Positions 3,351 through 34,556 of a stretch of 64,000 bases of DNA are shown piece by piece. The first letter of the stretch is position 1. Each line of letters begins with the position of its first letter. The DNA is from Oscillospiraceae bacterium (GTDB taxonomy: Bacteria > Bacillota > Clostridia > Oscillospirales > Oscillospiraceae). The stretch lies in NCBI GenBank assembly GCA_021770845.1, contig JAETQF010000007.1, positions 1 to 64,000 on the forward strand. The letters run 5' to 3'. The translations under genes were made by a program, and so were the position numbers. The notes below the pieces were generated by a model that saw nothing but the letters and a program-made list of their open reading frames with translations, ran no database searches and had not been told where the DNA came from.

Positions 3351-4398
3351 GGGATGAATACCTGACCACAGCTCAGAATCGCGTCAAAGATCTCCTTGCG
3401 CAGCATAATCTCATCCGGGATATAGCCGTCGCTGATGTACTTGCGGATGATGGTGCCGCTGATCTCCACCCGGTGGGTCTCATAGTGGGCGCAGTGCTTG
3501 TCCGTCACGATCTGGCCGCATTTTTTGCAGAAATAGGGCTCCCGGGTGAGAAGGAGCTGGATGCCCAGATCCGGCTCCTTCTCACCCGGGCCAAGGCGTG
3601 GGCATCATAAGCGCCATAGTACCCGCCCACCCCGGCGTGATCTCGGCCGATGATGAAGTGAGTACAGCCCAAGTTGCGGCGGATGATGGCGTGGAACACC
3701 GCCTCCCGGGGCCCCGCATAGCGCATCTGGGTCTTGAGCCCCGCGATATGTACCCGATTCTTGGGATAAAACTCCTCAATCATCCGGTGATAGGCCGCCA
3801 TCACCGCCTCCTCGGTAAAGTCCCCGGTCTTTTTCCAGCCCACGATGGGGTTGATGAACAGGCCATCACACACCTCAAGCCCAATGCGCTGGATGTGCTC
3901 ATGGGCCTTGTGGATGGGATTGCGGGTTTGGAAGCCCACCACCGTGTTCCAGCCTTTTTCCCCAAATGCCAGTTTGGTGTCCTCCGGCTTCAGCGCATCC
4001 GTCAGCAGGGAACGATCTGTGAGCCGCACCGGCCCTCCCACCCGGCACGCGGAACGCTCCCGTTCCTTGCGCACGCCGGGGTGGGCGTTCTCCCCGGTGC
4101 GGAACACCGTTTCAATATCCCCATCCGTCATGCGAAATTTGCTCTCCACGTCCAATTCCGCCACGGGAGCACCACCGTGCTCCAGCGTCAGGGTATGGCC
4201 GGGTTGGATGTCCACGAACTGTTCCTCCGGCACATCCAGGGTGATAGGCAGGGGGAACACCTGCCCATCCGCCAAACGACAGCAGTCCACCACGCTCCGG
4301 AAGTCCTCTGCGCCCATAAAACCCGTGAGGGGAGCCAGCAGCCCGGTTTCAATGTTGATTACATCCTGCAGGGTTTCCTCATTGATCGTTACAGTCAT
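3347..4398 (-). pseudogene. sat: Sulfate adenylyltransferase (ATP sulfurylase) with a frameshift near 3590
   Basis: From ATG 4398 the frame encodes ATP sulfurylase, which makes APS from ATP and sulfate. The nucleotide-binding motifs QTRNPIHKAHE and GRDHAGVGGYYGAYDAHA are present. The frame then runs into about 24 unrelated residues and stops at 3505. The adjacent frame resumes exactly with EKEPDLGIQLLLTREPYF, then the zinc-binding CKKCG and the normal end, and stops at 3347 overlapping the next gene. All catalytic motifs precede the break; the zinc-ribbon C-terminus is lost. The break lies at one arm of a perfect 17-bp inverted repeat. It is either a recent mutation or an assembly error. The start follows an AAAGGAG site. 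Confidence 0.85.
3541..3590. repeat. 17-bp perfect inverted repeat inside sat at the frameshift
   Basis: Positions 3541-3557 and 3574-3590 are exact reverse complements separated by 16 bases. Such a long perfect palindrome inside a conserved coding region is unusual. One arm encodes conserved in-frame residues (LLLTRE) and the other arm coincides with the frame break. Confidence 0.9.
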
Positions 4399-4411
4399 GG
4401 TGTGCGCTCCT

Positions 4412-4927
4412 TTACCGGTATTGGGAGCCATACTTGGCCGCGATATAGTCCAGCACCGCCTGGCAGGACTCCTCCTCGGTCTGCTTATCCACTTCCAGCA
4501 CCAGATCTGGGTGCTGAGGATCGTCGAAGGAAGCGTCAATCCCCACAATTTGGGTCTTGCCCGCATTGGCGCGGTACATTCCCTTTACATCATTTTTCAT
4601 GCTGATTTGCAGATCTTTTTTCAGATAAATTTCATTATACCCGGCGATCTTCCGCCGAGCCAGAGCTCGCAGATGCTCCAGCGGAGAAATATTACAGACA
4701 ATGCCCACGATGTCGTTTCGATCCAGCAGATAGGCCCCCAGGATGATCCGCTTGATGTTGGCCTCCCGCTCCGCGTCGGAGTAGCCCAGATCCCGGTCAA
4801 AGAGATCCCGCACCTCGTCCCCGTCCAGCAGATAGTTTTTGACGCCCAACTGGTTAAAGTGCGCCTCCAGCTTCCGGCCGATGGTGGTTTTGCCCGCGCC
4901 CGATATGCCGATGAGCCAAATAATCAT
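4412..4927 (-). CDS. cysC: Adenylylsulfate (APS) kinase
   Basis: 171 residues, the usual length for a stand-alone APS kinase. The P-loop GISGAGKTT is at residue 7, followed by LDGDEVRD (about 34), LGYSDAEREANI (about 48) and CNISPLEHLRA (about 79). The enzyme phosphorylates APS to PAPS, the universal sulfate donor. It lies 13 bases upstream of sat and 12 bases downstream of the sulfotransferase gene. No PAPS reductase is seen nearby, so the PAPS is more likely used for sulfation than for sulfur assimilation. Confidence 0.93.
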   Translation of the reverse strand: MIIWLIGISGAGKTTIGRKLEAHFNQLGVKNYLLDGDEVRDLFDRDLGYSDAEREANIKRIILGAYLLDRNDIVGIVCNISPLEHLRALARRKIAGYNEIYLKKDLQISMKNDVKGMYRANAGKTQIVGIDASFDDPQHPDLVLEVDKQTEEESCQAVLDYIAAKYGSQYR

Positions 4928-4939
4928 TGCAATTCCTCC

Positions 4940-6961
4940 TCAGTGGTACAGCGGCTGCTCTAACAGCGCCGGATCCAGCTTTAGCTTGGGCATCATGTGC
5001 AGAGGCTGGCCCTTCCTGTTTACAAAATATTGTCCCTTTAACAGCAGCTTCGCTACCTCCAGACGATTCTTATCCATGGCCTCCATGTACTGATCCAGCG
5101 CGATTCGCCGTGTTTCGGCATCTAACTCCTTGGTCAGTTCGGCGCTGGCGTTCTTGGCCTCGAGCTTAATATCCGTGTTGTTGAACACGTTCCTCCCCCA
5201 CGTCTCCCGCATCAGGGCGTTGAGTGTGGTGAAACCCTTTACCAATGCTTCCACCTTCTCCTCATCCATGGGAGCGCCATCGTAATATTTAAAATCGTAG
5301 CCATAGTACTCATATACATCCCGGAGAAAGTACTCCAAAAAGTACCGTTCGTCATCATTGGCAAACTCATCATACGTGCGGTATACGGCGGCGGTGGAGA
5401 AGCCGATATCGTTGCCCTCCAGGGATTCGGGATCCCGCTGTCCGTACATGGAGCAGTAGGTCATGCTTTCGGTATAGGGAATATCCAGGAACGCCGCCAG
5501 AGCCTTGAACGTCGCCGTAGGATTAAGCTTGGCATCCTCGAACCGGACGAGGATGCTGTCCATAAACAGCCGCTCCTGCCCATCCACCATGAAGCTGCGG
5601 TTGCACAGCCGGGTGTAGATCTCATCCCCCACCACCAGACCCTGGCCCTTTTCATTGACGCCCTCCTTGGTCTCTTTCCACATAAATTTCACCGCCGCGC
5701 CGTAGCTGGTGGTGGGCCGGCGCATGGGGGTGAGCGTCTTTACGTACTTGAAGCCCCGCAGCAGCGGCGACGCGCACATTTTATCGTAGTTCTTCGAGGT
5801 CAGCATGGTGTGGCCGTGATCGTCATAGAGCAAGTCGTAATCCATGTTGTGGAAATGGGGCTGGAAGAACAGCGTCGGCGCGATGCGGGGCACCGTGTCC
5901 AGCCAGGGCGTGTGGGACAGGAACCAGCCCACCAAAATGTCTTTGTCCGTCCGATCCTTCAGCAGATACAGATCCCGGACGGCCAATTCCTTCCACTGGG
6001 GCAGGCGCTGGACGGCGTCCTCCTCGCTCTCCGCCTCCGCCAGCGCCGAGCGGCACTCCTCTATCGCCTTATCCACGCTGTCGTGCATGATGGAGGGCAG
6101 AGCAAGCAGGTTTGGGTGATTGTCAAAAATCTCGTTGAAAAAGTCGCCGCCGTTGTGGCTGGACAGCTGGGTATGCCAGATCAGCCGGGTAACGTCCCGG
6201 ACGCCTACCGCCACCGTCAGATAGTCGGAGTAGTCGATCCCAAAGCGCTCCTTGAAATCAATCGGATACTGGGATCCCTCGTCCTCCATGAGAAATACGA
6301 TCTTTTTCTCCCACTTTTTCTCCTCGATCAGCGGGCGCATATTCAGCACCTGGAGATGGGCGCAGAACAGCCCCCAATCGGTATAGTGGAGGTAGATGTG
6401 GTTATCCTTGCCCACGTGCTCGCTGCGCCGCACGTTGTCGTTGAGATATTCCAGCTCATATTGGGAGTACACATCTTCCGCCAGCACCGGCTTGTCCAGA
6501 TCGTGGAAGAAATTCCGGCTGATCACCGGGTGGTTGAAGTTTACATACGCCCCGAACCGGCCCTCCGCCGGGTAGAAGGGAACATATCCCTTGTCATCAA
6601 AGGGGAAAAACCGCACCGTCAGTTCCTCGAAGGCAGGGAAATCCTTCCGGAACAGATAGGAGTACCCCTCCAAACGTTTGCAGTTATTCCGATAACGCGC
6701 TTTGAGCGCCTTGACATTGGGCTCATAGAACGCCTGGGTGAGGATATTCAGGCATTCCTCCCGGCGGAAGCCCCTTCCATACAGGTTCAGCAGGCAGGTG
6801 TAGGCCACCCGGTAGTCCTCGCCGGAATAGAGGATGTAGACGGCGGCCTCGAACTCCTCCTCCGGCGGGCAGCCGTTGTGCACGGCCAGGGTGTATGCCT
6901 TGACGGCCTGCTTCTTTTCCCCCAGCTGGGCCAGACGGCGGGCAATCTCAATCGCGTTCAT
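4940..6961 (-). CDS. Large sulfotransferase-family protein next to flagellin
   Basis: 673 residues. The C-terminal half carries sulfotransferase hallmarks: MRRPTTSYGAAVKFMW (about 413-428), like the RxPxxxxxS 3'-phosphate-binding segment, and SILVRFEDAKLNPTATFKAL (469-488), the VRYEDL...P motif before an AAFLDIPY helix. A clear 5'-phosphosulfate loop (PKSGTTW) is not obvious. The first 100 residues look like TPR-type helices. There is no signal peptide or membrane segment, so it is probably cytosolic. It is followed immediately by the PAPS-synthesis genes and preceded by flagellin. A flagellin or surface-glycan acceptor is plausible but unproven. Confidence 0.75.
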   Translation of the reverse strand: MNAIEIARRLAQLGEKKQAVKAYTLAVHNGCPPEEEFEAAVYILYSGEDYRVAYTCLLNLYGRGFRREECLNILTQAFYEPNVKALKARYRNNCKRLEGYSYLFRKDFPAFEELTVRFFPFDDKGYVPFYPAEGRFGAYVNFNHPVISRNFFHDLDKPVLAEDVYSQYELEYLNDNVRRSEHVGKDNHIYLHYTDWGLFCAHLQVLNMRPLIEEKKWEKKIVFLMEDEGSQYPIDFKERFGIDYSDYLTVAVGVRDVTRLIWHTQLSSHNGGDFFNEIFDNHPNLLALPSIMHDSVDKAIEECRSALAEAESEEDAVQRLPQWKELAVRDLYLLKDRTDKDILVGWFLSHTPWLDTVPRIAPTLFFQPHFHNMDYDLLYDDHGHTMLTSKNYDKMCASPLLRGFKYVKTLTPMRRPTTSYGAAVKFMWKETKEGVNEKGQGLVVGDEIYTRLCNRSFMVDGQERLFMDSILVRFEDAKLNPTATFKALAAFLDIPYTESMTYCSMYGQRDPESLEGNDIGFSTAAVYRTYDEFANDDERYFLEYFLRDVYEYYGYDFKYYDGAPMDEEKVEALVKGFTTLNALMRETWGRNVFNNTDIKLEAKNASAELTKELDAETRRIALDQYMEAMDKNRLEVAKLLLKGQYFVNRKGQPLHMMPKLKLDPALLEQPLYH

Positions 6962-7070: not shown

Positions 7071-9209
7071 TTACTGAAGGAGCTGGAGCACGCCCTGGGG
7101 CACCTGGTTGGCCTGGGCCAGCATGGCCTGGGCGCTCTGGATCAGGATGTTGTTCTTGGTGTAGGCCATCATTTCCTCGGCCACATCGGTGTCGCGGATG
7201 GTGCTCTCGGCATCCTGGATGTTCTCGGTCATGACGGACAGGTTGTTGATGGTGTGATCCAGACGGTTCTGGGTGGCGCCCAGAGTACCACGGACGTCGG
7301 ACACCACATTGATGGCGTCCTTGATCTTCTGGATGGCCTTCTGCGCGTCCACCTCGTTGTCGATCTTCAGATCGCCGACGCCCAGAGAGGCGGCGTGCAT
7401 ATCCTTCACCGCCACGTTCAGCTGGTTGAAGTCGTCGCTGGTGTCGCCGATCTGGAGGGTCAGGCCCTTGCCCAGCACCTCGGCCATCTTGCCGGGCTTG
7501 CCGTAGATGGTGAGGGTGCTGCCGCTGATCGTCGCGCCGGAGCCCAGCTTGGTGGCCAGGTTTCCGGCGGCATCGGTGCCGTCCTTGGTGAACTGGACGT
7601 ACTTCACCTTGTCGCTGTCGGTCTTGCCGGTCATGTCGGTGGTGAACACGTACTTCACATCGTTGATGTTCAGCACATCGCCGTCCTTCACCTTGGTGCT
7701 GTCGATGTCCACCTTCACGCCCGCCTGGGTGTCGGGATCGGTGAGCTTGAACAGATCCTGGAACTTGGTCTTGTCGGACAGCTTATCCAGGATGGCCTTG
7801 TCGGTGATAGCGCTCTCGTTAATGGCGCTCTCGGGATCGGCCTTCTCGAAGATGGACAGCTTGCCGTAGGTGCCGTCGTTACCCACGGAGAAGTTCTTGT
7901 TGCCCGCGGTGCCGGCGGTGATGGCGGCCATGATCGCCTTGGCGTCGTCGCCAGTAGCACCGTTCAGATCATCCACCTCATAGGCGGTGAGATCGATCTT
8001 ATTCTCCGCGTCCGCATAGGCGCTGTCCTTGCCGATGGCGAAGGTGTAGGTGGTGTCGCCGATGGTCAGCTTGGAGCCGTCCTTGAGGGAGGCCATGTCC
8101 AGGGACAGCAGGGTGCTGGCCAACTGGGTGGTGGAACCGGCGGAGGGGCCCGTGATGTTGGTGGTCTTGACGTTCTGGGTGTTGGCGACGCCGTTGCCAA
8201 TCTGGGCCTTGCTGCCACACGTAACGTTGACCGCAAAGTTGGGGGAGACCATCGCCCCGGTGTCCACCTTGGTGGTGGGGATGCCGCCCTCCAGAGAGGC
8301 CCATGCGGTAGCCTTGGTGGCCACCTTGTCGGTCTTAAAGGTCAGGGTGCCGTCGCCGTTGTCCGTCACGCTGTAATGCAGGGCGCCCACACCCAGGCCA
8401 GTGCTGGTATGCTTGGCAACCGCGCCACCGGTTGTAACCATAATGCCGTTGGCCATTGCGGCCTTAAACTTCGCGGCCAGCTCCTCGGCGGTGAGGGTGC
8501 CCGTAGCGGTCGGAGTATAGGTGGCAACGGCCTGACTGCCGATCTTCAGGACAATTTTGCCCGTGGAACCGGTGGCGGATACCTTACCGGCCAACTGGCT
8601 CATGTCGATGGTGAACTCGCCCGCCTTGGCGGCCTCGCCGGTCTTGTGCAGCACGGACTTGCTGGCGCGAGCAGCCTCGTTAATGGTGCCGGTCGCCCAA
8701 GACGTCGCGATGGCCGCGCCGCCGGGAACAGCCTTGCCCGCCGCAAAGGAGGTGAGATCGCCCACCTTGAAGGCGCTGCTCAGGCCCAGGGTGCCGTCCA
8801 GCAGGTTGATGCCGTTGAAGTTGGAGCTGTCGGCGATGCGGTCGATTTCCTCCAGCAGCTGGTTGACTTCCTTCTGCATCTGGAAGCGGTCGGTGTCATT
8901 GTCGTAGGTGCCGTTGGCGGACTGGGTGGCCAGCTCCACCATACGGTTGAGCATATCGTGCACCTCAGTCAGGGCGCCCTCAGCGGTCTGCACCAGGGAG
9001 ATGCCGTCCTTGGCGTTCTTCTGGGCGGTCTCCAGGCCGGTGATCTGGGCCCGCATCTTCTCACTGATGGCCAGACCGGCGGCGTCGTCGCCGGCGCGGT
9101 TGATCTTGTAACCGGAAGACAGCTTCTCCAGGTTCTTCTTCATGGCGGCCACGTTGTTGGTGTAGTTCCGGTAGGCATTCATTGCCATGATATTGTGCTG
9201 AATCCTCAT
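7071..9209 (-). CDS. fliC: Flagellin with a very large variable domain
   Basis: 712 residues from ATG 9209, which has GAAAGGA 10 bases upstream; the frame is open further but [15 protein letters not shown] is the standard flagellin N-terminus. Conserved D0/D1 regions are residues 1 to about 145 ([21 protein letters not shown], here given as its family signature) and the last 90 (AMLAQANQ...). The roughly 450-residue centre is a low-complexity, Thr/Ala/Gly-rich, surface-exposed D2/D3 region, far larger than in 270-500-residue flagellins. It is rich in potential O-modification sites. It follows csrA and a nuclease-dead TnpB, and precedes a sulfotransferase. It is secreted by the flagellar type III route, without a signal peptide. 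Confidence 0.95.
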
Positions 9210-9380: not shown

Positions 9381-9587
9381 TTACTGGGGCTTGGCGGCGA
9401 TGGGATCCACCAGGCCCTTGGGGCGCTGGCCCTCGTTTCGCTCCCGCACCTCGCCCCGGAGGATGGCCAGCTCCTTGGGCGCCTTGATGGCCAGCCGGGC
9501 GGAGGTGCTGGAATCCGGGAACACCTGGATGACGATATCCTCGCCGATGGTCAGGTACTCCCCTTCCTTCATCTGCAAAAACAGCAT
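9381..9587 (-). CDS. csrA: CsrA-family RNA-binding translational regulator
   Basis: 68 residues from ATG 9587, chosen because AAAGGAGTTT lies 3-9 bases upstream and MLFLQMKEGEYLTIG matches the CsrA start (normally MLVLTRKxGE). DIVIQVF and SARLAIKAPKELAILRGEV match the beta-strand core and the C-terminal RNA-binding helix (usually A.aP..v.v.R.E). Its position directly upstream of flagellin is the classic Firmicute arrangement in which CsrA represses flagellin translation. FliW, its usual antagonist, is not in the window. The first strand diverges (FLQMK for VLTRK), so affinity may be altered. Confidence 0.85.
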   Translation of the reverse strand: MLFLQMKEGEYLTIGEDIVIQVFPDSSTSARLAIKAPKELAILRGEVRERNEGQRPKGLVDPIAAKPQ

Positions 9588-9637
9588 GGCAAACTCCTTT
9601 CGCCGGTATGGGCCCGCAGTCCGTTCGCGCCCGCTCA

Positions 9638-9814
9638 AAGCACAGTCATAATATTTTGGACGCCCTCACGGGCTTCAGGTGTGCGCACACACCCTCTCGT
9701 TTCCCGCTTTTCCGCCTGGAAACGCTGATCGAAAGGAAAACGAAGTTTACCCTTCGATCAACGCCTCCGGCCTGGAATCACGGGCGCAAACCGCTGTCCC
9801 GGGCGGCGTATCGG
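9638..9814 (-). ncRNA. Candidate guide RNA (omega-RNA-like) of the nuclease-dead TnpB
   Basis: The 227 bases between the TnpB-like stop and csrA are too structured for a simple spacer. Read on the minus strand they contain, in order: a hairpin TGATCGAAGG/CCTTTCGATCA (9760-9751 with 9736-9726), a CGTTTCC/GGAAACG hairpin (9724-9718 with 9704-9698), the palindrome GTGTGCGCACAC (9690-9679) and a tight hairpin GCCC-GTGA-GGGC (9673-9662). TnpB guide RNAs are encoded at this place, finishing with a short GC hairpin before the variable guide. The guide would then begin near GTCCAAAATATTATGACTGT (9661-9642). Boundaries are inferred, and the same A/T-rich stretch could alternatively hold a csrA promoter. 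Confidence 0.55.
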
Positions 9815-10969
9815 TCAAGCGCAGATCTGCGCCAAGCCGTTTCGCTTGATATTGCGGGCGGCGTTGACCTCTGTGTTGTGCGCCGCGCCGCACTTGGGGC
9901 AGACCCAGGTTTTCGCTTTCCGCGGAACCGCGTCCCCCGCAAAGCCGCAGGCGGAGCAGGTGCGGGTGGTGGGCTGGTACCGCCCCACCAGGACGAGGGG
10001 CTTGCCCTGCCGCTCCAGCTTGTACCGCAGGCACTCCCGGAACATTCCGAACCCGGCGTCCGGCACGGGGCCCAGCCTGATCTCCCGGGCCATCTCCCGC
10101 AGGTCGTCGTCCCGCACGCACACGGCGTTCCAGCCGTTGGCTATCCGGCTGGATTCCTTGTGGGTGAAGTCGCGCCGCTGGTTGGCGATGTGCTCGTGGA
10201 GCAGGCGGTATTTCCGCGCCGCTTCCTGATAATTTTTGGAGCCAGGCTCCATGCGGCTGAGCCGCTGCTGGAGCTTTGCCAGCTTTTCCTGGGACTGCTT
10301 CAGCCAGCGGGGCGGGTCGGCCATCTCGCCGTTGTCGGCCACATAGAAGTGGGCCAGGGAGTATTTCAGGCCTATTGTGGTTTCCGCCGTGGGCGCCGCC
10401 GGGCTTGGGGCCTCGCTGTCATACTCATAGAGGATGGAGCAGAAGTATTTTCCCGTCCGGGTCTTTTCCACGGTGATCCGCCGCAGCTTCCACCAGGCCT
10501 GGGGCCGGCGGGAGAACCTGGCCTTGACGATGCCCGCCTTGGTCATGCGGATGCCGTCCCTGGTGGTGTAGATGGTGGGGCCGGACTCAAACACGTGGTT
10601 GCAGGCGGTGAAGGAGTCCTTGTCGGCCTTTTTCCGTTTGAAGCCCGGGTGGCCGAAGGCCTCCGGGTTTTTGAAGAACATCCGGAACGCCTGGGCCAGC
10701 TTGTTGTGCTCCTGGATCAGGGCCTGATTGTCCACTTCCTTTAAAAAAGGGGCTTCCTTTTTATACTTGGCCGGTGTGGGCAGGAAGTGCCGGTCGGTCT
10801 CCAGGTAGAACCGCTGCTCGTCGGCCAGCATATGGTTCCAAATATACCGGCAGCAGCCGAAGGTGTTCTCAAACAGCTCCGCCTGGGCCTCGGTGGGGCA
10901 GAGCCGGACTTTGAGGGTGGTGTACCGAACCGTTTTGCCGTCCGCGGCATCCCGTTTCCTCCACGCCAC
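9815..10969 (-). CDS. Nuclease-dead TnpB homologue (TldR-like RNA-guided repressor candidate)
   Basis: 384 residues with the full TnpB layout: N-terminal FGCCRYIWNHML, WED/REC-like middle, RuvC-like core and zinc ribbon CSAC...CPKC (338-360). Against active TnpBs of the same subfamily, the three catalytic acids are all changed. The RuvC-I Asp of GLDFS is Lys202 in GLKYS; the RuvC-II Glu of C(I/V)EDL is Arg286 in CVRDD; the RuvC-III Asp of DRDINAA is Glu367 in NTEVNAA. Flanking motifs (SRIANGWN, GMFRECLRYKLERQGK, TRTCSACG) are intact, so this is selective loss of catalysis rather than decay. The start is GTG with AAGGAG 10 bases upstream. No IS ends or TnpA are recognised. The flagellin context matches known TldRs. 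Confidence 0.87.
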   Translation of the reverse strand: MAWRKRDAADGKTVRYTTLKVRLCPTEAQAELFENTFGCCRYIWNHMLADEQRFYLETDRHFLPTPAKYKKEAPFLKEVDNQALIQEHNKLAQAFRMFFKNPEAFGHPGFKRKKADKDSFTACNHVFESGPTIYTTRDGIRMTKAGIVKARFSRRPQAWWKLRRITVEKTRTGKYFCSILYEYDSEAPSPAAPTAETTIGLKYSLAHFYVADNGEMADPPRWLKQSQEKLAKLQQRLSRMEPGSKNYQEAARKYRLLHEHIANQRRDFTHKESSRIANGWNAVCVRDDDLREMAREIRLGPVPDAGFGMFRECLRYKLERQGKPLVLVGRYQPTTRTCSACGFAGDAVPRKAKTWVCPKCGAAHNTEVNAARNIKRNGLAQICA

Positions 10970-10991: not shown

Positions 10992-11017
10992 CACGCAGAA
11001 GCTATAGGTTCTGCGTG
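10992..11017. repeat. 9-bp perfect inverted repeat between recombinase and TnpB homologue
   Basis: CACGCAGAA and TTCTGCGTG flank an 8-base spacer, in the 60-base gap between the recombinase stop and the TnpB-like start. It lacks a T-tract. It could be an operator for autoregulation, a recombinase site or a remnant transposon-end hairpin. Confidence 0.7.
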
Positions 11018-11029
11018 GCTCGTTTTTAC

Positions 11030-11707
11030 TTAATTCTGTTGTTTGTTCAACCATTTTCCGACGCCGCCCCTCCCGGCTGCCTCTCCGTCGTCACCCCCTG
11101 TCCAGGCTTCCGCGCACAGCTCCCTTGCCCTGCGCAGGAACGTGTCCCGGGACATCCCCAGCTCCCCGGCGGCGCGGCTGGCGGAGACGCCGCCCTCCTG
11201 CCACTGCCGCGCCATGGCCTCAAACCCCAGCGGCAGGGACAGCCGCTCCCGTCCAAACCGGACGCCGGCCGCCCTGGCCGCCGCGATGCCCTCCGCCTGC
11301 CGCCGGCGGATGTTCTCCCGCTCGGTCTGGGCCACATAGCTGAGGAGCTGGAGCACAATGTCCGCAATGAGCGTCCCGGTGAGATCCCGCCCCCGCCGGG
11401 TGTCCAGCAGGGGCATATCCAGCACCACAATGGCGGCCTCCCGCTCCTTTGTAATGACGGCCCACTGCTCCAGGATCTCGGTGTAGTTCCGGCCCAGCCG
11501 GTCAATGCTCTTGATCACCAGCACGTCCTTCTGCCGCAGCCCCTTTACCAGCCGCTGGTAGCGGGGCCGGTTGAAGTCCTTCCCCGACAGCTTTTCCACA
11601 ACGATCCGCTCGTCCTCCACGCCGAACTCCCGCATGGCGGCCATCTGGCGGGCCTCGTTCTGCTCACGGGTGGATACCCGCACATAACCGTAAGTCGTTC
11701 CTTCCAT
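11030..11707 (-). CDS. Serine recombinase of the resolvase/DNA-invertase (Hin/Pin) family
   Basis: 225 residues from ATG 11707, which has GGAGG 7 bases upstream. The catalytic domain begins YGYVRVSTREQNEARQ (active serine in RVS). IDRLGRNYTEI (about 79) and the E-helix YVAQTERENIRRRQAEG (about 128) follow. A C-terminal Hin-type HTH (about 180-205, VSASRAAGELGMSRDTFLRR) identifies an invertase/resolvase; IS607-type TnpA would have an N-terminal HTH. It is co-directional with the TnpB homologue 60 bases downstream. Invertases beside flagellins can switch flagellin expression (Salmonella hin-fljBA). No matching pair of inversion sites was found by eye. Confidence 0.88.
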   Translation of the reverse strand: MEGTTYGYVRVSTREQNEARQMAAMREFGVEDERIVVEKLSGKDFNRPRYQRLVKGLRQKDVLVIKSIDRLGRNYTEILEQWAVITKEREAAIVVLDMPLLDTRRGRDLTGTLIADIVLQLLSYVAQTERENIRRRQAEGIAAARAAGVRFGRERLSLPLGFEAMARQWQEGGVSASRAAGELGMSRDTFLRRARELCAEAWTGGDDGEAAGRGGVGKWLNKQQN

Positions 11708-11859
11708 AGAATTGCCTCCTTGTTTCATCATGGTCGCAGCTCTATTCTACAGGAAATGACAAATATCACCAGACCCGCCGCCCTCCCGCTCCCCTTGGAT
11801 CGGGGCCCTGGACTCGGAACTTTTCCAGCTACGGCGGGGCCCTGCCCAGGGAAACAATA

Positions 11860-32439: not shown

Positions 32440-32548
32440 AAAGGAAACTGGGCGCACCGAGTCAGATCAGCGCGCCCAGACGGTCGGCAGTCAGACGCAA
32501 TCGCGCCGCCGTACTCCATGTGGTGCTCCACTTCCGTCAGTCATACGG
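32440..32548 (-). promoter_or_regulatory. ZTP (pfl) riboswitch and terminator upstream of fhs
   Basis: On the minus strand the core reads ATGACTGACGG, then GTGG-loop-CCAC, ATGGAGTACGG, and finally GCCGACCGTCTGGGCGC. These match the pfl consensus (GUGACUGGCG ... GGGGAG ... GCCGNCUGGGC). CTGGGCGC (32479-32472) also pairs with GCGCCCAG (32455-32448) followed by TTTCCTTT, a terminator that would compete with the aptamer's 3' part. ZTP binding should therefore allow fhs expression. Aptamer extent is about 32470-32548. Confidence 0.8.
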
Positions 32549-32555
32549 CAAGAAT

Positions 32556-34294: not shown

Positions 34295-34360
34295 AAACAA
34301 ACCGTTGCTCAACAACGGAATCCTGCACCCTCCCAATGCACGGGGAGGACATTTGTGCGT

Positions 34361-34528
34361 CATATGTGGGCAGGTATTCTGGCTGAAGCGTCAAACGTCT
34401 TTTCCGGCCTTCCCAGGGAAACCCCCAGTGACATTCTTGGAAAACACTCCGCTAACACAGCAACGGCATTGCGCGGGATTCACACCCGCTTCCCTATTGT
34501 GCGCCCGGGAGAGCGCACCCACATACCC
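34361..34528 (-). promoter_or_regulatory. Cobalamin riboswitch
   Basis: On the minus strand the full set of conserved blocks is present: GGGAA, GGTGTGAATCC, TTGCTGTG, GTCACTGGG, GGGAAGGCCGGAAAAGACG and CAGAATACCTGCC. The P1 helix is TATGTGGG (34525-34518) with CCCACATA (34370-34363). It should shut off the DUF4430/ECF genes when adenosylcobalamin is plentiful. Confidence 0.95.
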
Positions 34529-34556
34529 TTTTATTCACTTTATGGTCTACCCTTTT

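What the first reader, a model, noticed from the sequence alone, without database searches (positions are those of the whole stretch)
9815..10969. TnpB homologue with all three RuvC catalytic acids replaced: a TldR-type repressor candidate
Motif alignment from memory with active TnpBs of the same subfamily gives GLDFS to GLKYS (K202), C-I/V-EDL to CVRDD (R286) and DRDINAA to NTEVNAA (E367). Folding motifs and the four zinc-ribbon cysteines are kept. Loss of all three acids without frameshifts or stops implies selection for binding without cleavage. Established knowledge: TldRs are nuclease-dead TnpB proteins that use guide RNAs to silence promoters, with described groups beside fliC (enterobacterial prophages) and oppF (enterococci). 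Here the setting is a Firmicute chromosome with a recombinase, csrA and flagellin. I cannot tell whether a csrA-linked group has already been reported.
Basis: partly seen in the sequence, partly recalled or inferred. Interest (0 to 1): 0.95.

Follow-up and report, generated by a model that had tools for sequence, protein, structure and literature searches.

The report
Known RNA-guided flagellin switch, new copy
A gut bacterium carries a dead version of a DNA-cutting enzyme that most likely uses a small RNA to switch off other flagellin genes; this kind of system was published in 2026, and the added point here is that the flagellin next to it carries mostly silent changes that spoil the match to its own guide.

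Summary
Confirmed. The ORF at 9815-10969(-) is a full-length TnpB homologue with K202, R286 and E367 where active TnpBs have D, E and D. In 47 relatives the first place is never D (47 aligned), the second never E (46), the third never D (45). dN/dS is 0.12-0.27 in 9 pairs. A structured guide RNA (9636-9809, -) lies directly downstream; its guide spells the first codons of flagellin. The interpretation (TldR-type repressor) is supported, but the csrA-linked group is already in print (Nat Microbiol 2026, PMC13418256), with binding data for other members. So this is a new member of a known kind. What I add: in 24 of 26 loci with both kinds of flagellin in the genome, the neighbouring (cis) flagellin matches the guide seed worse than the best distant (trans) one, in 2 equally, in none better. 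The changes are mostly synonymous and sit mainly at guide positions 3 and 6; codon use further on does not differ. A sister clade with another guide register shows the same at a different codon. The window copy lacks the invertible promoter segment seen upstream of tldR in 33 of 45 loci: one 26-bp site remains, as a recombinase deletion (or an assembly collapse) would leave. Binding and repression were not tested.

The parts
9815..10969 (-). tldR: TnpB homologue without RuvC acids (K202, R286, E367), 384 aa
   Evidence: AlphaFold2 model mean pLDDT 80, best Foldseek match the TnpB-omegaRNA-DNA complex 8h1j
9656..9809 (-). guide RNA scaffold with a long stem-loop of the kind reported to be cut by RNase III; the start is set by conservation and may lie further upstream
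   Evidence: fold z-score -4.97, 0 of 200 shuffles as stable; 30-sequence alignment: 25 of 46 pairs with changes on both sides, 0 of 500 shuffles reach it (the structure came from the same alignment)
9636..9655 (-). guide AATATTATGACTGTGCTTTG; its first 9 nt equal codons 6-8 of the trans flagellin of the same genome; the boundary to the scaffold and the length are inferred from conservation
9381..9587 (-). csrA (68 aa, start ATG at 9587)
   Evidence: Pfam PF02599 53.7 bits; place
7071..9209 (-). cis flagellin gene; start ATG AGG ATT CAG CAC AAT ATC, one mismatch to the guide seed
   Evidence: PF00669 and PF00700; start; mismatch count
11030..11731 (-). hin-like serine recombinase
   Evidence: PF00239 98 bits; a hin-like stretch, whole or partial, in 35 of 48 loci
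10992..11017 (.). single 26-bp palindromic recombination-type site between hin and tldR; relatives have two, flanking a promoter segment
4940..6961 (-). 673-aa protein of unknown family directly downstream of the flagellin
4412..4927 (-). APS kinase (cysC-like)
   Evidence: PF01583 121.8 bits
3505..4398 (-). ATP sulfurylase; the start is estimated, and the Pfam match stops at profile position 139 of 212
   Evidence: PF01747 198.7 bits

Best explanation
It is a member of the published csrA-associated TldR group: a nuclease-dead TnpB that binds the guide RNA encoded just downstream of it and is led to the first codons of other flagellin genes, where it blocks transcription, so that the flagellin encoded beside it can take over the filament. 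Shown here: dead active site, conserved guide RNA structure, purifying selection, guide seed identical to the trans flagellin of the same genome, cis flagellin mismatched at the seed. Inferred: RNA binding, DNA binding, repression, and the switch of filament type. CsrA as a second, translational brake on the same target is taken from the paper; here only a weak motif signal bears on it.
For: No D/E/D in 47 relatives; dN/dS 0.12-0.27 in 9 pairs; fold closest to TnpB-RNA complexes. The guide RNA model is matched in 38 of 38 genomes; these had been picked for the protein, and the model was built from loci of many of them. Own genome: guide against trans flagellin C5 0 of 9 seed mismatches and 4 of 17 overall; against the neighbouring flagellin 1 of 9 and 6 of 17. 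Over 26 loci with both kinds: cis worse 24, equal 2, better 0. Codons 6/7: AAT and ATT in 30 of 30 trans; AAC in 27 of 39 and not ATT in 35 of 39 cis, while codons 10-75 do not differ (AAC:AAT 252:28 cis, 190:28 trans, p 0.32; Ile p 0.57). Family genomes without a guide RNA hit: AAT ATT in 12 of 28 flagellins. Paper: RIP-seq and ChIP-seq for other members.
Against: The 3' half of the window's guide departs from the family (TGTGC for NATGA), so pairing beyond the 9-nt seed is poor. The seed differs from the neighbouring flagellin by one base only, and AAT to AAC or ATT to ATC would leave rU:dG wobbles, so escape may be partial. No sigma-D-like promoter was found by pattern in the 600 bases before tldR in the window. 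Two cis flagellins match the guide seed fully (L012, L022). The genome is 82% complete; the trans flagellin is seen as two contig-end pieces that I take for one gene. No expression data.
Confidence: 0.86

Rival explanations
1. A decaying transposon TnpB: the acids were lost by drift and the locus is on its way out, with no role.
For: The window copy has no promoter segment upstream and its guide has diverged at the 3' half.
Against: dN/dS 0.12-0.27; the three acids are replaced in copies from 37 other genomes of the collection; compensatory changes in the guide RNA; csrA in 41 and flagellin in 42 of 48 loci.
Confidence: 0.05
2. The family works as a repressor, but the window copy is locked: the hin-like recombinase has excised the invertible promoter segment and left one site.
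For: Of 45 loci with enough sequence, 33 have two 26-bp sites 114-138 bp apart within 600 bp upstream of tldR, 23 with the sigma-D-like promoter facing away from tldR, 8 facing it, 2 unclear; the window has one site, 48 bp before tldR (49 and 48 in L009 and L018 for their inner site), and no such promoter. The second copy in this genome (L057) has both sites, promoter facing tldR.
Against: It may be an assembly collapse at a repeated site; read-through from hin could still drive tldR; 12 of the 45 loci, the window among them, gave no pair under the thresholds, several of them with a rearranged hin, so a missing pair is not unique.
Confidence: 0.4
3. The codon differences at the guide target reflect different codon habits, mRNA structure or ancestry of cis and trans flagellins, not escape from the guide.
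For: Early codons are under special constraints; AAT ATT is also common (12 of 28) where no guide RNA is found; the sign test ignores kinship, and on supported branches only 6 independent pairs exist (median p 0.0625).
Against: Codons 10-75 show no difference; on a quick tree of 67 rows without the first 12 codons the cis/trans label changes 24 times and the seed state 22 times; the sister clade, whose guide reads CAT for His, has CAC in 7 of 7 cis flagellins for which the guide was read.
Confidence: 0.12

Closest known systems
csrA-associated TldR clade (PMC13418256, Nat Microbiol 2026; sections 11 and 33 read in full, other passages by term search, figures and supplements not seen)
   Same: Gut Oscillospiraceae relatives, dead RuvC, csrA and fliC linked, hin upstream, guide inside the fliC ORF, long stem-loop in the guide RNA, several loci in one genome.
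   Different: The window has one recombination site and no invertible promoter; its guide is diverged at the 3' half. The synonymous mismatch of the cis flagellin was not found in the paper's main text by the terms synonymous, self-target, silent, avoid, evade, escape.
fliC-associated TldR of enterobacterial prophages (Wiegand 2024; not held; known from PMC13418256 passages and recall)
   Same: Dead TnpB beside its own flagellin, guide against the host flagellin.
   Different: Linked to csrA and hin here, not to a prophage flagellin gene; target in the ORF rather than the promoter. That the window lies in chromosome and not in a prophage is by eye and was not tested.
Active TnpB of IS200/IS605 (ISDra2, PDB 8h1j, 8exa)
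   Same: Fold and sequence over the whole length; guide RNA downstream.
   Different: All three catalytic acids replaced; guide matches a host gene. A TnpA transposase was not searched for.

Membership tests
TldR | Full-length TnpB homologue with RuvC acids lost | tested here: met
TldR | Guide RNA encoded downstream with conserved scaffold | tested here: met
   (sequence and structure; expression not seen)
TldR | Guide matches a host gene elsewhere in the genome | tested here: met
   9 of 9 seed bases and 13 of 17 overall to the trans flagellin G000:C5
TldR | RNA-guided DNA binding and repression without cleavage | not testable with these tools
   needs RIP-seq, ChIP-seq, reporter and cleavage assay
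csrA-associated TldR clade | csrA and fliC directly downstream | tested here: met
csrA-associated TldR clade | hin-type recombinase upstream (most loci) | tested here: met
csrA-associated TldR clade | About 120-bp inverton with FliA-type promoter downstream of hin (reported for F. plautii loci, not defining) | tested here: not met
   one site and no promoter by pattern in the window; two sites in 33 of 45 loci
csrA-associated TldR clade | Guide target inside a fliC ORF | tested here: met
   codons 6-11
csrA-associated TldR clade | RNase III-cut dual guide RNA | tested here: inconclusive
   the expanded stem is there and covaries; cutting not testable
csrA-associated TldR clade | CsrA binds the 5' UTR of the target fliC | tested here: inconclusive
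   CAA(N)GGATG in 8 of 30 trans leaders and 0 of 40 cis leaders, motif shape chosen after a look; three other patterns in the same call showed no difference at 0.05

The most novel reading that the evidence does not exclude
The cassette is a guide-immune flagellin allele-exclusion unit: each unit carries a guide against the common flagellin start and a flagellin recoded, mostly at synonymous positions, so that its own guide does not hit it; some units also carry a set that may modify flagellin (673-aa protein, APS kinase). Two clades with different guide registers have done so independently, and recombinase-driven excision, as perhaps in the window, can freeze the switch.
Probability: 0.45. 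Interest if true: 0.62.

Novelty: new member of a known kind. Interest (0 to 1): 0.42.

Why it matters
It shows a domesticated transposon nuclease used as a natural CRISPRi-like switch in gut bacteria known largely from metagenome assemblies. The cis/trans codon pattern, if it holds, gives a sequence-only way to tell in a genome which flagellins are regulated and which are protected, and a direct test of the seed rule.

Tried and rejected
An inverton in the window itself: the repeat search gave one such palindrome. Fold of the 673-aa protein: AlphaFold2 mean pLDDT 59, so no fold search was run; best Pfam hit E 0.018, below its cut-off, and no solved relative up to E 1; the sulfotransferase idea rests on a motif read by eye. 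TAM: the bases before the target are coding and nearly invariant, so none could be read. A strict promoter pattern missed many; the looser pattern and the site thresholds were set after that look. Papers on flagellin with sulfotransferase or PAPS: none of the 15 listed, of 127, was on the point by title.

Rows dropped or doubtful: the guide alignment A1 took 30 of the 37 stretches listed. The guide table used 41 of 48 loci; four sister-clade loci (L042, L043, L044, L046) and three without the guide RNA region (L037, L041, L048) were left out beforehand, and two flagellin rows with a stop in the start were left out of its trans set. In one search I entered 59 of the guide RNA places and left out the weaker rows, mainly reverse-strand partial matches; one of these, G076:C1:653-725 (30.8 bits), lies 503 bases before a flagellin that I count as trans; without it the exact seed is in 28 of 31 trans rows instead of 29 of 32. 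One search used 39 main-clade cis and 30 trans flagellins (no cis one found for L024 and L042, none for L142). Genomes of L017, L019, L023, L024 and L045 were assigned by accession prefix. The count 12 of 28 was made by hand over the 14 of 19 genomes with no hit; one of them (G233) has a distant TnpB with D/E/D.

Full report
Observation. The ORF 9815-10969(-) is intact, 384 aa, and a TnpB homologue over its whole length. Profile alignment to ISDra2 TnpB puts K202, R286 and E367 at the three acids. Among the 46 loci from the genome collection and the second copy in the own genome, no copy has D at the first place (47 aligned), E at the second (46) or D at the third (45). Three more distant TnpBs, from the same order, genus and family, have D/E/D (L074, L075, L170). 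Nine pairwise comparisons give dN/dS 0.12-0.27. The model (mean pLDDT 80, pTM 0.59) matches TnpB-RNA complexes best (8h1j, E 6.8e-26, TM 0.64 by query length).

Surroundings. Order along the minus strand: hin-like recombinase, tldR, guide RNA, csrA, flagellin, a 673-aa protein of unknown family, APS kinase, ATP sulfurylase. Of 48 loci (window and L057 included; many cut by contig ends or flank), a hin-like stretch is found in 35, csrA in 41, flagellin in 42, the 673-aa protein in 14, an APS-kinase-like gene in 13, ATP sulfurylase in the window alone. A second tldR copy lies on contig C38 of the same genome, 79% identical.

Guide RNA. Downstream of tldR, 30 aligned loci share a scaffold with strong covariation (25 of 46 pairs changed on both sides, 0 of 500 shuffles) and end in a near-constant stretch AATATTATGACNATGAA; 27 of 41 main-clade guides have exactly AATATTATG. 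The window's stem of about 22 pairs fits the RNase III stem described in the paper. A model built from them is matched in 38 of 38 genomes picked for the protein and in 5 of 19 other genomes of the family that have a flagellin of this type, one of these weakly.

Target. The guide corresponds to flagellin codons 6 to 11 on the coding strand, so the RNA would pair with the template strand. The own genome has three flagellin starts of this type: C5 (trans, AATATTATG), the window (AATATCATG) and C38 (AACATAATG). The window guide has no seed mismatch to C5 and one to its neighbour.

Self-escape. With flagellin starts of 38 genomes (34 had one) and the main guide RNA places, 77 flagellins fell into 36 next to a strong guide RNA (over 100 bits), 9 next to a weaker one and 32 with none of the entered places within 2.5 kb upstream; exact AATATTATG in 2 of 36, 7 of 9 and 29 of 32 (one doubtful trans row is told under Tried and rejected). 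With each locus's own guide, 26 loci allow a paired comparison: cis worse in 24, equal in 2 (L014, L022), better in 0 (sign test 1.2e-7, without regard to kinship). L012, which shows no csrA, has a neighbour that matches the seed, and no trans flagellin was found there to compare. Over all 39 loci with guide and cis flagellin, 37 have at least one seed mismatch; of 32 guide-trans pairs, 22 have none. In 31 of 39 cis flagellins the amino acids at codons 6-8 are still Asn-Ile-Met, so most changes are synonymous. Codon use further on does not differ. In family genomes with no guide RNA hit, 12 of 28 flagellins have AAT ATT, against 30 of 30 trans flagellins of guide-bearing genomes. Of eight loci found later, six could be read: four main-clade ones (L156, L157, L159, L161) have mismatched cis flagellins, and two sister-clade ones (L158, L163) have CAC against CAT in the guide; in L160 and L162 no guide was recognised. 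Among the sister-clade loci, 7 of 7 distinct cis flagellins with a readable guide have CAC against CAT; against this, G094:C9, next to a 44-bit hit whose guide was not read, has CAT. On a quick tree of 67 rows the label changes 24 times, so it is not one inherited difference, but only 6 supported independent pairs exist, in most random pairings 5 for and 0 against (median p 0.0625). Limits: most changes would leave rU:dG wobbles; how much binding they cost is unknown.

Inverton. Of 48 loci, 3 had too little upstream sequence; of the other 45, 33 have two 26-bp inverted palindromes within 600 bp upstream of tldR with 88-112 bp inside, 23 with a sigma-D-like promoter facing away from tldR, 8 facing it and 2 unclear; in L005 and L020 the pair lies further off, before a partial hin stretch. 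The window has one such site, 48 bp before tldR, and no such promoter by pattern: what excision between two sites with a palindromic AT centre would leave, or an assembly collapse. That recombinases of this kind use 26-bp sites with a two-base centre is recalled. The paper reports the inverton for Flavonifractor plautii.

What is known. PMC13418256 (sections 11 and 33 read, passages elsewhere) describes this clade with RIP-seq, ChIP-seq and the RNase III result, and cites Wiegand 2024 and Altae-Tran 2023 for it (neither held). It tells of an Oscillibacter strain with four csrA-tldR loci; the genome of Oscillibacter sp. 1-3 here (G081) has seven hits, four full-length places and three reverse-strand partial overlaps, and may be the same strain. 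So the group is known, and the window is a new member. Searches for the group in print; for self-escape within that paper. Its figures and supplements, which may show the cis mismatch, were not seen.

Verdict. TldR of the csrA-linked kind, confidence 0.86 for the working model; repression and binding are inferred from the paper's members and from the guide.

Noticed in passing
window 3505-6961: Downstream of the cis flagellin lie a 673-aa protein of no known family, APS kinase and ATP sulfurylase; 13 other loci show the 673-aa protein (L003 as a short match near a contig end, L030 in pieces) and 12 of these an APS-kinase-like gene after it. A flagellin-modifying (perhaps sulfating) set is a guess.
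   Followed up: partly
window 3505-4398: The ATP sulfurylase match stops at profile position 139 of 212, so the gene looks cut short or out of frame at its end.
   Followed up: no
window 9646 (guide position 10): Guide position 10 is A in 38 of 41 main-clade guides, while the flagellin starts listed there have G: a conserved mismatch with no explanation.
   Followed up: no
L057 740-1894: In the second copy the APS kinase domain is joined to a methyltransferase domain in one ORF.
   Followed up: no
L033 and G085:C14: A flagellin with Ile-Leu (ATTTTG) at the target is matched by a guide that also reads ATTTTG: one case in which guide and target seem to change together.
   Followed up: partly
L005, L006, L014, L015, L016, L017, L020: A partial hin-like stretch lies beside tldR, in all but L020 together with another hin copy further upstream; in L008, L015, L021, L029, L038 and L044, among others, hin lies on the other strand.
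   Followed up: no
window 32467-32554 and 34352-34537: ZMP/ZTP and cobalamin riboswitches.
   Followed up: no
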